From positions 73,444,696 through 73,508,695 of the forward strand of contig JALGQZ010000003.1 of the NCBI GenBank assembly GCA_023105745.1: a DNA stretch of 64,000 nucleotides, read 5' to 3'. The translations under genes were made by a program, and so were the position numbers. Shown here in pieces: positions 10,426 to 32,963 of the stretch. The stretch is from Austropuccinia psidii. Its lineage: Eukaryota > Basidiomycota > Pucciniomycetes > Pucciniales > Sphaerophragmiaceae. The first letter of the stretch is position 1, and every line of letters begins with the position of its first letter. The notes under the pieces were generated by a model. That model did no database searches. It had not been told where the DNA came from and was given only the letters and a program-made list of their open reading frames with translations.

Positions 10426-10471
10426 CACCAGGGCGAATCTCGCGTCAATCGTCGGCGATTGACTTCACGTC
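10426..10471 (+). repeat. Left terminal inverted repeat of the 22.5 kb transposon
   Basis: 46 bp, matching the reverse complement of 32918-32963 with one mismatch (CGCGTC here, CGTGTC there). It contains an internal palindrome, TCAATCGTCGGCGATTGA, able to form a 7-bp stem. The TSD TGT precedes it. Confidence 0.95.
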
Positions 10472-10620
10472 GCACCGCGGTCAGTATAAAATCTTGCTTC
10501 AGTCGCGTTAGTGTCACTTTATAGTCACTGGATTTAGTGGGTCACGTCACGTCAGCGTCAAGACAACGTCAATCGTCACATGTGTCACATGAGAATGTCA
10601 CTCAAAGCCCAAACCCATTT
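10472..10620. repeat. Left subterminal region with repeated ACGTCA words
   Basis: Short words of the ACGTCA/CGTCA type recur, for example in CACGTCACGTCAGCGTCAAG near 10543-10562 and again as CAACGTCAATCGTCAC near 10564-10579. The right end (32838-32917) carries the complementary TTGACGT words. CACTA-type elements usually have subterminal repeats bound by their DNA-binding protein; that role here is inferred. Confidence 0.6.
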
Positions 10621-10794
10621 CAACACTATGCGCAACGTTCGTGTAATTTCACCTCATTGGCTTCCGCCTCCCCGACGCTTAGCATGCTTACGCACCCGCA
10701 CCGCCCTCCATCCGGATGAGACTCCGACACTGCCCGCCCCTCTTCGTCCTCACCACTCCTTACGCTTTCACACCCCCGCCCCTACCATCCTTAC

Positions 10795-11128
10795 GCTTGT
10801 GTAGGACCCTCCCGACATGCCTCCGACAACGCTTACCATCCTTACGCTCATGTAGTGCCCTCCCGACATGCCTCCGACACCACTTATGAACCTTATGCTT
10901 GTGTAGTGCCCTCCCGACATGCCTCCGACACAGCTTACCATCCTTACGCTTGTGTAGTGCCCTCCCGACATGCCTCCGACAACGCTTACCATCCTTACGC
11001 TCATGTAGTGCCCTCCCGACATGCCTCCGACAACAGTTACCCTCCCTCCCGACATTATCCCGACACTGCTTACCATCCTTACGCTCATGTAGTGCCCTCC
11101 CGACATGCCTCCGACAACGCTTCCATAT
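10795..11128. repeat. 51-bp tandem repeat (minisatellite)
   Basis: The word CCCGACATGCCTCCGACA recurs at 10811, 10862 and 10913, and onward with a 51-bp step (one shortened unit near 11040-11070). The unit also contains CCTTACGCTYRTGTAGTGC. Because 51 is a multiple of three, all frames stay open and give 17-residue peptide repeats on both strands; I see no reason to call any of these a gene. Confidence 0.9.
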
Positions 11129-11145
11129 TACATCCATAGTGTACA

Positions 11146-11167
11146 GTACGGTGGCTTGTTGGCGTAC
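11146..11167. other. Variant intergenic palindrome
   Basis: GTACGGTGGCTTGTTGGCGTAC: the outer arms pair (GTACG/CGTAC) and the centre departs from the GGTGGCATGCCACC core seen at 14026, 17877, 22828 and 28704. It lies between the left minisatellite and the first gene of the large transposon. Confidence 0.5.
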
Positions 11168-29092: not shown

Positions 29093-32000
29093 ATGACAAC
29101 CCGGCCCTATTCCTCAATGCGTATATACATGTGTCAACACTGCTCAACTCAAACACACTCTTCCCCTGAGGGTGATAGGCAAGGAGTTGCCTTCACACCT
29201 TTCCAATATAAACAGCACATTAAAAAGCTCAAATCAACCATTGCACCCAAATCTCTTCCAAACATCCCTACTTCTGCATCAGGATCTGGGTGCCCACAAA
29301 TTCTATTGGATCAAATCTTCCCAGCTGATTATTCACGTTTGACCCAAAGCACTTTCCCAACTCCAGCGGGTCTCAATTCAACTGCACAGAAACCATATAG
29401 TGGCAGTCAAACCCTTCCCCCACAAGACCTAGGAATGATAATATCTGCCATTCTATCATTAAGGTATAATTTACCCCGCAGGGCTTCACCCATACTCAAC
29501 CCCGCCCTGAACCTGCTGATCAAGTCCAGTATCTCAAGCTCAGCTGTTCCCCCTGCTCTTGCATTCCATATACCTCAAGATCTGAGTACCATATTTGAAC
29601 ATCTCCAATTGGAGCCAGTGATTCAAAACTATATATGTTGTCCTCAATGTTTCTCTCTTAATGGCCTTACTGAATCAGTCACAGCTGACCAACCCCACTG
29701 TCAACGCCATAATGACCCAAATGATCATGATCCCCCTTGCACACAATCATTAGGCAAATTCATCTATTCATCTGAACCCCACACCCAAAACACAACCAAC
29801 ATGAAGCAAAAATTTATACCCACAAAACATTTCATTTATCAACCATTCAAAAATTGGCTTGCCCCATTTCTCCAGCGGGCTGGAATGATGGACATTCTGC
29901 ATCAACATCAACAATCCCAAACTCCCGAAGATTCCCCAAAACGTGACGTCTGGGATGGATTGGTCTGGAGACGCTTCACTGGCACTAGAAATATCCATGA
30001 CCCCCCATTCATGTCCATTCCTGGTGCATTGGCCTTCTCCATATATGTGGACTGGTTTAATGCACATGGAAAGTCAACCCGGTTGGTTAGCATTGGACCT
30101 ATCATGCTTATTTGTCTTAATCTCCCCCCAAGTGAAAGATTGAAGCCCGAGAATGTCTATGTTGCAGGAATCATCCCTGGTCCGAAGGAGCCAACTGCGC
30201 TTCAATTGAATTATCTATTAATGCCACTCATCAACGAGCTCAAAGAGCTATGGCAAGGTTACCATTTTGCACCCACCTCAACAGGTCCATCAGGATCCTT
30301 TATCCGTGTTGCCATCCTCACAGCCATTGCGGATGTGGTTGCCATGCGCAAGCTTACTGGATTTATTTCCCATTCAGGAAACCACTTTTGTAATTTTTGC
30401 ACCATTCACAAAGCTCAAATTGAAGAAATTGGTCCTCAATTTCACTACACGCGCTCATACCAAAGTCATAAATCAACCATTGCCAAATGGCTTCGGGCAA
30501 CCTCACAACAAAGACAAGCAATTTTCTCTGAGTATGGAGTGCGATATTCAATTTTGGAAGACCTTCCGTATTGGGATGCAACCAGAATGGTTAATCTTGA
30601 CATAATGCATAATTTAATACTTGGAATTTTGAAGGATCATGCAACTTTCAAATTGTGCATTCCAGAGGCGAAATCAAAAATTTACTTCAGGTCCCGCAGG
30701 AAATCCAATGACACCAACAGTTCAGACTCAGATTCCAAGACCTCCAACAGCTCTCTTGATAAAATCACATTGAGAGAGGCCCGCTCCCTGAGAAGAGACG
30801 CAGCAAAAATAATAAATGAGCCACTCCCCACTACTTCCACATGAGAAAACTACTTCCCAATGCCCACCCCTAACACAGAACATCCATCTAGTGGTTCTGC
30901 GGAGATTCTTTCATTTGATGCCAATTACATCCCCACTTCTGAAATACCCTCTGAATTGGATATCACTGCACTGAGTGATCACCAGATCAAGGGTGAGGCT
31001 CTTGAGCATCTCCGACAAATCATATCTGAGACCATAATTCCCTCATCATGGACAAGAGTTCCCCGCAAAATGGGTTCCCCCTCTCATGGTAGCTTAAAAG
31101 CCGCTGAATGGGCTCTCTTATATAAGGTCTATATTCCATTTCTAATGCTCAGTCAACAGATGTCATTAGATGCACACCAATCTGCCAACACTCAAAGAAA
31201 AATGGGTCAGTCAGAAGAACTTGCAAATGAACTAGCCAAGAATACATTCCATTTGATTAGTGCTATCAACATTGCCACAAGCTGGACTGTTTCAATAGAT
31301 GATGCGACTGCATTTGCTGAACATTGGAAAAAATTCCGCCTTTCCAATCAACACCTGTTCCCAAAACAGAAAAGTAAACCAAATCATCATTTTGCTGATC
31401 ATATTCCCGAACTCTTCCAACGTTGGGGCCCAGCACAAGCCTCAGCCACATGGGGTTATGAGCGCTTGATTGGAGTATTTGCAAAGATGCCAACAAATAA
31501 CAAGATATGTACGTCAATTAATAAGATCAATATATTCACATTGATTAAACACCTGAACTGAATAAGACTAACTTTTTGCAACTCTGAATAGATGATATAG
31601 ATAAAACCCTACTTCAACATATCTGTCGATGTTCCAACCTTTCTGTTCTCCTGAAATCCCCATCTGTGCCATGTGAAATAAAACAGCTTTTCGAATCACA
31701 GCCACCTGCCGTGTTCAATCACCATAAATATAACAAGCCATCCCGCCATGACCAACAAAATTATGATTTCCTGGTTGAGTACTTACAGACTTTTCATGCA
31801 ACAAGGGAAATAGTTGATTGGATCAGCTTAGACACTACCGTGCAATCCACAAGTCCTCCCACTTCAAGGATTGTCTCACCTTGGTATTTTCCAGTTTCAA
31901 ACATTAATATTGGGAACAATATATTTTCAACTGAATCCAAAAATATCAGCAACAGTGTGATATGTTTTCTGAGGGGCAACTCACGACAATTTGGTATTAT

Positions 32001-32253
32001 TGGTAGCATTTTCAAAGTCTCTGAGCCATCTAGCATACTGAACAATAACTTTCTGATTTTAAAAACTTTGAAGATTGATGTGAATTTCCTACCAGATTGG
32101 CCGTATCTCAATATTTATAAAGCTATTGGTTTTGATGATGGACACTTGATTATATCTGAAGAAGAAATAGAAGGTAACTGTGGATTGTATGATAACAAAG
32201 CTCTGTCATGTGGACTGCTTGTAATGATAAAGCCGTTATTTCATGATATTTAG
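29093..32253 (+). pseudogene. Tnp2-like transposase (CACTA/EnSpm superfamily), one in-frame stop
   Basis: Exon 29093-31508, then a GTACGT...AG intron, then 31592-32253; about 1,020 residues. The N-terminus has Cys pairs (CQHC) and a second Cys/His-rich patch (YICCPQCFSLNG ... CQRHND), zinc-ribbon-like. The core shows WDGLVWRRF, then IMLICLNLPPSERLKPENVYVAGIIPGP split over about 30 residues, CNFC and LDIMHNLILGIL, typical of the Tnp2 transposase family that cuts and pastes CACTA elements. A TGA at 30842-30844 (likely from CGA) is the only break: the frame continues without shift to SWTVSIDDATAFAEHWKKF and HFADHIPELFQRWGPAQASATWGYERLIG. It sits nearest the right terminus, fitting the 3-bp TSD and TIR type. 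Confidence 0.85.
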
Positions 32254-32837
32254 TCTACAAAAATGCAAATCTCTCAGATTCATTAGCAATTTTGCTAGTG
32301 AAATAATTGCCTCAAAATTTAGTGACAGAGACATGCCATTGTGACGAGCAAAGCCCATTATTTCACATTGCCACAAAGAAGTTACTATTTTGACATTGGG
32401 TACAGTGTGAATAAGCCAAGTCCAATAATCAAATGACCCACACACTCACCTTTCACAGCATCCAAAATTTCTAACTGCGCCATCATCATGTTGGAAGCGG
32501 AATCAGCTTTTGCGTACCCACACCCGCATGTGCACCCGCACGCGCCAATGCACACGCACACGCACCCGCACACCCACCCGCACACGCCAATGCACACGCA
32601 AACGCACCCGCCCCCACGCATGCACACGCACACTTCATGGATGACCTGGTGAAGTCAAACCCCCCGCCTACATCAAGACTGGCTGAAGGACATCTTTGAT
32701 GTGTGTGTGCAAACAGGCGGGTCTGGTGTAATTTTTACCAATCATCGGACGGTTGTGGCATGATCAGGTGGTGAGGAATCTGAGTTGAAGGCACAGGGGA
32801 ACCAATATTATTGGATGTCACAGGATTTGGTGTAAGA
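32254..32837. repeat. 3' flank of Tnp2 with a CACACGCACCCGCA low-complexity tract
   Basis: No gene. From about 32515 to 32635 the sequence is built from CACACGCA, CACCCGCA and CGCCAATGCACACGCA words, a purine/pyrimidine alternating and strongly CpG-rich simple repeat. The open frame on the minus strand across it is a by-product of the repeat. Confidence 0.8.
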
Positions 32838-32917
32838 CCAGAGTGTGACGTGTGCTCGACTTTCGCTTGATTTTCGCTTGACGTGAGCTCGACTTTTATC
32901 CTGCTTGACGTTTGCTT
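32838..32917. repeat. Right subterminal repeats
   Basis: Repeated TCGCTTGA / GCTTGACGT / GAGCTCGAC words: GTGCTCGACTTTCGCTTGAT, GTGAGCTCGACTTTTATC, CTGCTTGACGTTTGCTTGAC. They match in kind the ACGTCA words near the left end and lie immediately inside the TIR. Confidence 0.75.
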
Positions 32918-32963
32918 GACGTGAAGTCAATCGCCGACGATTGACACGAGATTCGCCCTGGTG
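32918..32963 (-). repeat. Right terminal inverted repeat of the 22.5 kb transposon
   Basis: Reverse complement of 10426-10471 with one mismatch; ends GAGATTCGCCCTGGTG and is followed by the TSD TGT at 32964-32966, then by the RNase H region of element B. Confidence 0.95.

What the first reader, a model, noticed from the sequence alone, without database searches (positions are those of the whole stretch)
10426..32963. A 22.5 kb cargo-carrying CACTA/Tnp2 transposon with exact ends and TSD
Seen: 46-bp TIRs with one mismatch, TSD TGT, and rejoining of a retrotransposon RNase H frame when the element is removed. That fixes both ends to the base. Inside are six genes, only one of them a transposase. 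Known: CACTA elements have 3-bp TSDs and Tnp2-like transposases. Inferred: a single unit that moves a TET/JBP-like oxygenase, SNF2 helicase, Zn2Cys6 protein and two unknown proteins together.
Basis: partly seen in the sequence, partly recalled or inferred. Interest (0 to 1): 0.92.

Follow-up and report, generated by a model that had tools for sequence, protein, structure and literature searches.

The report
Broken rust-fungus transposon carrying TET gene
A 22.5-kilobase jumping gene in what looks like the myrtle rust fungus carries, besides its own transposase, a DNA-demethylase-like enzyme and a chromatin-remodeller-like gene that may help it escape silencing; the kind is known, this gene set looks unusual, and this copy is no longer intact.

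Summary
The element spans 10426-32963, with 46-bp inverted ends (45/46), TSD TGT and CAC..GTG termini. Removing it restores an open gypsy pol frame that aligns gap-free across the junction to two other gypsy copies in the window. The transposase is Tnp2/EnSpm type. The host is inferred to be Austropuccinia psidii.

The interpretation needs three corrections. (1) A complete 1,918-bp solo LTR (14848-16765, TSD AGGTT) sits inside the element, 39 bp upstream of the TET-like frame; relatives read across that site without it. (2) This copy is decayed: Tnp2, SNF2 and gene A carry in-frame stops, and the Tnp2 stop lies before the catalytic E. (3) TET-carrying EnSpm elements in rusts are already published (Kojima 2025).

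Much of the gene set recurs: predicted proteins and locus-tag neighbours elsewhere in A. psidii repeat A-TET many times, and 5' end-A, TET-Zn and U-SNF2 once each. The join between the A-TET-Zn half and the SNF2-U-Tnp2 half rests mainly on this copy.

Best reading: a defective member of a TET+ EnSpm family whose TET and SNF2 genes probably counter methylation silencing; that function is inferred. The whole-genome copy search got no answer.

The parts
10423..10425 (.). Target site duplication TGT, left copy
10426..10471 (+). 5' terminal inverted repeat, 46 bp, begins CACCAGGG
10783..11045 (+). 5' subterminal array, 51-bp unit, 5.2 copies; sequence of this kind is joined to gene A in one other copy (P0145)
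11667..13907 (+). Gene A, unknown protein, several exons; in-frame stops at 12597 and 12843 in this copy
   Evidence: no Pfam family reached its cut-off
14025..14050 (.). Palindrome copy 1 (CGG-N10-CCG)
14848..16765 (+). Nested solo LTR, TG..CA, 5-bp TSD AGGTT (14843-14847 / 16766-16770), 85.5% identical to the LTR at 61810-63716; a later insertion
16805..17857 (+). TET/JBP-like 2OG-Fe(II) oxygenase gene, open; PF20515 E 1.2e-43 (stretch scanned 16754-17857)
17877..17902 (.). Palindrome copy 2 (one half-site changed)
18020..18524 (+). Tandem repeats downstream of TET; similar sequence follows TET in other copies
19004..20313 (-). Zn2Cys6-like protein (C-x2-C-x6-C-x9-C-x2-C-x6-C), probably several exons; its last frame stops at 19006 where 4 aligned relatives read on
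20890..21630 (.). Direct repeats upstream of the Zn2Cys6-like gene (150 and 207 nt, 91-92%)
22828..22853 (.). Palindrome copy 3 (CGG-N10-CCG, 13 of 13 dyad pairs)
23332..25690 (+). SNF2-family helicase gene; in-frame stops at 24403, 24448 and 24971 in this copy; 3' limit inferred from open frames
26071..28132 (-). Gene U, unknown protein with predicted long helices; no stop recurrently opposed by residues of relatives
28705..28730 (.). Palindrome copy 4 (both half-sites changed), between divergent U and Tnp2
29093..31561 (+). Tnp2 (Transposase_21) gene; in-frame stop at 30842 lies between D-D-C2C and H3H-E; a further open frame 31588-32253 may be a last exon
32918..32963 (-). 3' terminal inverted repeat, 46 bp, one mismatch
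32964..32966 (.). Target site duplication TGT, right copy
6472..39704 (-). Host Ty3/Gypsy element interrupted by the transposon; LTRs 97.6% identical; TSD ATAAG at 6467-6471 and 39705-39709

Best explanation
This is a once-autonomous EnSpm/CACTA-type DNA transposon family of the myrtle rust genome. The Tnp2 transposase cuts at CACCAGGG ends and pastes with 3-bp duplications. The family carries a largely recurrent set of accessory genes. The TET-like oxygenase would oxidise 5-methylcytosine on the element, the SNF2 ATPase would open chromatin, and the Zn2Cys6-like protein and/or U would provide sequence targeting, together keeping the element expressible in a genome that silences transposons by CpG methylation. 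Shown here: ends, TSD, empty site, gene families, recurrence of linked blocks in other copies, and decay of this copy by stops plus a solo-LTR insertion. Inferred: cut-and-paste movement, the anti-silencing function, and the targeting role. This copy would need a transposase supplied from elsewhere.
For: Ends, TSD and empty site. Tnp2: PF02992 E 5e-16; D, D, C2C, H3H and E (assigned by motif) conserved in 6 of 6 long relatives compared. TET: PF20515 E 1.2e-43. SNF2: PF00176 in two frames, E 3.6e-23 and 2.7e-11. Recurrence: of 121 TET-type relatives, 22 have at least 25 aa of extra N-terminus and 22 of 22 match the element's own upstream sequence; C-terminus 6 of 6; Zn N-terminus 5 of 5; A C-terminus 5 of 5. 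Four gene predictions (P0111, P0141, P0200, P0235) run from A into TET. On contigs of 10 kb or more, 5 of 5 cross-family locus-tag pairs no more than 4 apart are of types adjacent in the window element, against 0.08 such pairs expected. Sequence like both ends occurs at other loci: P0143 (5' end) and P0314 (3' end). Host biology: A. psidii TEs are CpG-hypermethylated and the genome is strongly CpG-depleted (PMC12774611 and PMC8063080, passages). The element keeps CpG (o/e 0.62) where the rest of the window is at 0.13.
Against: Higher CpG is also what a younger family would show (PMC12774611, passages), so it does not prove protection; gypsy LTRs (0.37-0.44) and the solo LTR (0.30) are also above the gypsy interior (0.03-0.05), so CpG varies for other reasons too. 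The left and right halves are not firmly linked in any other copy examined: of 9 tag pairs only Zn-U and SNF2-Tnp2 are of types that are not neighbours in the window, both on contigs under 4 kb, and only Zn-U would bridge the halves. In one TET relative (P0014) the Tnp2 N-terminus precedes TET, unlike the window. Extensions of Tnp2 (0 of 3 N, 0 of 3 C), Zn C-terminus (0 of 4), U N-terminus (0 of 1) and one of two A N-termini do not match the element. The Zn cluster scores below the Pfam cut-off (E 0.061). No activity was measured.
Confidence: 0.7

Rival explanations
1. Composite: the A-TET-Zn block is (or was) a separate mobile element or passive insert inside a simpler Tnp2 element (Tnp2, U, SNF2); the six genes move together only in this copy.
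For: Kojima 2025 shows TET genes passing passively between unrelated transposon superfamilies in rusts (PMC12730594). Left-right linkage in other copies is weak. P0014 shows another arrangement. The four palindromes fall between gene blocks (A | TET | Zn | SNF2-U | Tnp2), so they could be old block boundaries.
Against: Of the 7 inverted pairs of 20 nt or more in the region, the six besides the TIRs are the palindromes themselves or pairs of 78-92% over 20-28 nt that I do not read as element ends; shorter ends are not excluded. The bases beside the four palindromes show no shared duplication by eye. In P0145 the element's 5' subterminal repeats are joined to gene A, so gene A sits at the 5' end in one other copy too.
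Confidence: 0.2
2. The accessory genes are captured host genes with no role for the transposon, kept by chance.
For: Three of six genes carry stops in this copy. A CACTA element of 20.5 kb is reported from soybean (PMC2613891, title and abstract start in a search listing only).
Against: The same genes and intergenic sequence recur across diverged copies; TET, Zn and U are still largely open here; transposon TET genes are mostly not disrupted (PMC12730594).
Confidence: 0.1

Closest known systems
TET+ EnSpm transposons of rust fungi (Kojima 2025, PMC12730594)
   Same: Rust host (Pucciniales), CAC..GTG termini, 3-bp TSDs, EnSpm-type transposase with similarity to Plavaka, TET-like oxygenase carried inside. 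Related EnSpm families are stated to occur in A. psidii, and TET genes of Austropuccinia transposons form four clusters there.
   Different: Among rusts the text names TET+ EnSpm families from P. striiformis; whether the related A. psidii families are TET+ is not said in the parts I read. The window copy is decayed and holds a solo LTR.
Maize En/Spm (TnpA/TnpD)
   Same: Tnp2-type transposase and 3-bp TSD (both recalled), and an element-encoded protein linked to demethylation of its own promoter (TnpA; passages of PMC10398659 and PMC1636069).
   Different: Spm makes TnpA and TnpD by alternative splicing (PMC1636069, passages) and has no TET or SNF2 gene (recalled); here the candidate demethylase is an enzyme.
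Arabidopsis VANDAL/VANC anti-silencing system (PMC10398659, passages)
   Same: Logic: a transposon protein that removes DNA methylation from its own family, acting on repeats in noncoding regions.
   Different: MuDR-type element (PMC12730594); VANC is not an oxygenase (recalled). Resemblance in logic only.
KDZ elements with TET (Kyakuja, Dileera, Zisupton)
   Same: Fungal DNA transposons with a TET/JBP gene.
   Different: Other transposases and 7-8 bp TSDs (PMC12730594).

Membership tests
CACTA/EnSpm | 3-bp target site duplication | tested here: met
   TGT on both sides, confirmed by empty-site alignment
CACTA/EnSpm | CAC..GTG termini with terminal inverted repeats | tested here: met
   CACCAGGG..CCCTGGTG, 46 bp, 45 matches; the literal CACTA core is not present (CACCA)
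CACTA/EnSpm | Transposase_21 (Tnp2) domain | tested here: met
   PF02992 59 bits, cut-off 28.6
CACTA/EnSpm | DDE triad with C(2)C and H(3-4)H between the second D and E | tested here: met
   all present, assigned by motif, and aligned in 6 of 6 long relatives; in this copy a stop separates D-D-C2C from H3H-E
CACTA/EnSpm | Short motifs repeated near both ends (recalled) | tested here: inconclusive
   CGTCA/TGACG 6 times in the first and 4 times in the last 200 bp against 21 in the 22,138 bp between; motif picked after looking; no binding data
Plavaka | PlavakaA TGT..ACA or PlavakaB CATCA..TGATG termini | tested here: not met
   ends are CACCA..TGGTG; PF18759 only just at its cut-off, 26.3 bits
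KDZ (Kyakuja/Dileera/Zisupton) | 7-8 bp TSD and KDZ transposase | tested here: not met
   3-bp TSD and Tnp2 transposase
TET/JBP oxygenases | TET-like 2OG-Fe(II) fold and HxD...H iron ligands | tested here: met
   PF20515 150 bits, cut-off 27; HVD and a distal H can be read in the window frame (assigned by eye). By a simple pattern 75 of 123 relatives show HxD, 5 another triplet, 43 do not fit the pattern
TET/JBP oxygenases | Oxidation of 5-methylcytosine | not testable with these tools
   no assay
Zn2Cys6 proteins | Zn_clus domain | tested here: inconclusive
   six-cysteine spacing fits, but PF00172 E 0.061, 13.9 bits against cut-off 21
Starship giant transposons | Tyrosine recombinase captain (DUF3435, recalled) | tested here: not met
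   no such domain among the 10 open frames scanned

The most novel reading that the evidence does not exclude
The transposon carries a self-directed anti-silencing kit: a Zn2Cys6-type DNA-binding protein recognises palindromes (ATGTACGGTGGCATGCCACCGTACAT, CGG-N10-CCG) that lie between the element's genes and nowhere else in the window, and brings the TET oxygenase and SNF2 remodeller to the element's own DNA. That would be enzyme-based, sequence-targeted demethylation encoded by one transposon. For: four copies with at most 3 mismatches against none in 100 shuffles (the consensus was drawn from repeats already seen); the only two CGG-N10-CCG sites in the window are among them. Against: half-sites are changed in two of the four copies here, and the translated flanks of other copies suggest loss too (P0008, P0032, P0077; read by eye).
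Probability: 0.15. Interest if true: 0.8.

Novelty: new variant of a known kind. Interest (0 to 1): 0.5.

Why it matters
Rust genomes are swollen by transposons and pay for it with methylation-driven loss of CpG. A base-exact element that pairs a TET-like enzyme with a chromatin remodeller gives a concrete, testable case for transposons carrying their own tools against DNA methylation. A near-complete A. psidii genome with 5mC calls exists (PMC12774611, passages), so the prediction can be checked without new sequencing.

Tried and rejected
Genome-wide TIR search: not completed. Structure of gene A: model pLDDT 44, of no use. Structure of U: pLDDT 58; only two helical stretches (about residues 83-140 and 251-300) rise to about 70 or more, so no fold search was made. 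PDB searches: TET none (E up to 1), U profile none and gene A profile one engineered protein at E 0.011 (E up to 5). A 17-base piece of the end in viral contigs gave 11 stretches with one match each; I took them as chance and did not test that. Papers holding EnSpm, SNF2, transposon and fungi together: none held. The idea that the element's CpG content proves protection was rejected, because age explains it equally well. My first wording that none of the 22 TET relatives has the solo LTR was cut back: only 10 of 22 contigs are too short to hold it.
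Full report
OBSERVATION. The window holds one pair of 46-nt inverted repeats at 10426-10471 and 32918-32963, 98% complementary. Moving one end by 1 to 3 bases drops the match from 46 of 50 to 8-14 of 50. TGT stands on both outer sides. The 450-bp flanks joined with one TGT read as one frame of 300 codons without a stop; I read it as gypsy pol with RNase H by its motifs and ran no domain search on it. The joined DNA aligns without a gap around the junction to two other gypsy copies in the window, 72% and 71% identical. The host gypsy is itself complete: its LTRs are 97.6% identical and it has a 5-bp duplication ATAAG.

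HOST. The 120 listed TET relatives (of 275 found) are all from Austropuccinia psidii MF-1, the top eight 83-95% identical. The window's GC (35%) fits the published 33.8% of that genome (PMC8063080, passages). I infer A. psidii or a very close rust; no tool named the host.

NESTED SOLO LTR. Window 14848-16765 is 85.5% identical to an LTR at 61810-63716, begins TG, ends CA and has a 5-bp duplication AGGTT on both sides. It is a solo LTR that entered the element later. It ends 39 bp before the TET ATG at 16805. All 22 TET relatives whose predicted protein extends at least 25 residues upstream match sequence on the far side of this LTR. In 10 of the 22 the contig is too short to hold a 1,918-bp LTR besides the coding sequence; in the other 12 a gene prediction that spliced over an LTR is not excluded. 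Without it the element is about 20.6 kb.

GENES. Pfam finds a TET-like oxygenase (PF20515, E 1.2e-43), SNF2 (PF00176, E 3.6e-23 and 2.7e-11 in two frames) and Transposase_21 (PF02992, E 5e-16, with a weaker Plavaka match). The Zn2Cys6-like protein has the right cysteine spacing but scores under the Pfam cut-off. Proteins A and U match no Pfam family above its cut-off and gave poor structure models. The Tnp2 D, D, C2C, H3H and E, assigned by motif, are present and aligned in 6 of 6 long relatives compared.

THIS COPY IS BROKEN. Aligned to relatives, Tnp2 has an in-frame stop at 30842 (29 of 34 aligned stretches carry a residue there, 5 a gap). SNF2 has stops at 24403 (23 of 23), 24448 (20 of 20) and 24971 (6 of 7). 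Gene A has stops at 12597 (15 of 16) and 12843 (19 of 20). The Tnp2 stop lies before H3H and E. Other stops in that table are opposite gaps (introns or other frames), fall in the repeats beside TET, or are opposed by few stretches, among them 19006 near the end of the Zn2Cys6-like gene (4) and 14643 upstream of TET (8). TET, U and the Zn2Cys6-like protein remain largely open; TET is cut off from its usual first codons by the LTR. Relatives that lack these stops exist in the same species.

IS IT ONE UNIT? No genome search was possible, so I used predicted proteins of A. psidii MF-1. Three searches gave 275, 145 and 595 hits; the best 120 of each were examined, 359 different proteins, 352 of them with MF-1 locus tags. 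By best match they fall into TET 121, Tnp2 81, U 57, SNF2 39, A 38 and Zn 23. Predicted proteins that run past their own gene show what lies beside it: TET N-terminal 22 of 22 and C-terminal 6 of 6, Zn N-terminal 5 of 5 and A C-terminal 5 of 5 match the colinear stretch of this element; A N-terminal 1 of 2; Zn C-terminal 0 of 4, U N-terminal 0 of 1, Tnp2 0 of 3 and 0 of 3 do not; SNF2 C-terminal 1 of 1 and U C-terminal 1 of 1 match the element's ends. P0145 joins the 5' subterminal repeats to gene A. Locus tags follow contig length (rank correlation -0.99999), so I counted cross-family tag pairs no more than 4 apart on contigs of equal length: 9 pairs, 7 of them of adjacent types (A-TET 5, TET-Zn 1, U-SNF2 1), against 0.79 expected by tag shifting. 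On contigs of 10 kb or more it is 5 of 5, against 0.08. Three more equal-length pairs lie 5 to 7 tags apart (Tnp2-TET, Tnp2-Zn, TET-TET) and were not counted. P0143 and P0314 show sequence like the 5' and 3' ends next to U and SNF2 of other copies. Thus A-TET recurs often, and 5' end-A, TET-Zn and U-SNF2 once each. The join of left and right halves elsewhere is only hinted at (Zn-U on a contig under 4 kb), and P0014 shows a different arrangement, with Tnp2 sequence before TET.

CpG. CpG observed/expected is 0.62 in the element (without the LTR) and 0.13 in the rest (without 50.5-54 kb); 20 against 37 one-kb windows, Mann-Whitney p 4.6e-9, though windows of one element are not independent. Gypsy internal sequence is at 0.03-0.05 although its two LTRs differ by only 2.4%; the LTRs are at 0.37-0.44 and the solo LTR at 0.30. 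This fits either protection by TET or simply a younger family; published work ties CpG content to TE age in this species (PMC12774611 and PMC8063080, passages).

PALINDROMES. A 26-bp palindrome occurs four times in the element with at most 3 mismatches and nowhere else in the window; none of 100 shuffles gave any match, but the consensus was drawn from repeats already seen. Two copies keep CGG-N10-CCG, the only such sites in the window. This is the spacing class of some Zn2Cys6 regulators (recalled). Two of the four copies have changed half-sites. The four also fall between gene blocks (A | TET | Zn | SNF2-U | Tnp2), so they may instead be old block boundaries; no duplication beside them is visible by eye. 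This is a lead and not a result.

COMPARISON. Kojima 2025 (PMC12730594; abstract, parts 1-5 of 7 of the main text and the figure section read; supplements not read) describes TET+ EnSpm elements with CAC..GTG ends and 3-bp TSDs in P. striiformis, related EnSpm families in A. psidii, and proposes escape from methylation silencing. This element belongs to that kind. SNF2 and Zn2Cys6 do not occur in its main text, and in the listings I saw no other paper on such a gene set; the 2014 report by Iyer and colleagues (year recalled; cited in PMC12730594) was not seen. CACTA is the second largest TE class of A. psidii (PMC12774611, passage).

VERDICT. A real, base-exact, decayed member of a TET-carrying EnSpm family with an enlarged and partly recurrent gene set. 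Good for testing transposon self-defence; not a new kind of element.

Noticed in passing
window 10444-10463 and its mirror in the 3' TIR: Each TIR contains a perfect 8-bp-arm palindrome, GTCAATCG-TCGG-CGATTGAC (read by eye), a possible transposase site.
   Followed up: no
window 6467-39709: Complete minus-strand Ty3/Gypsy element with TSD ATAAG, almost free of CpG in its interior although its LTRs are 97.6% identical.
   Followed up: partly
window 50587-53093: 2.5-kb AT array (TAATTAA-like units), GC down to about 3%, with long inverted arms.
   Followed up: no
P0143 and P0314 (A. psidii MF-1 proteins): Predicted U and SNF2 proteins run into sequence like the 5' and 3' ends of the element, read inwards, as if copies had inserted into or beside copies; splicing by the gene predictor is possible.
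   Followed up: partly
P0014 (A. psidii MF-1 protein): TET prediction with the N-terminus of Tnp2 in front: a rearranged copy or a prediction across two elements.
   Followed up: no
window 32513-32644: CACACG-rich imperfect repeats just inside the 3' end.
   Followed up: no
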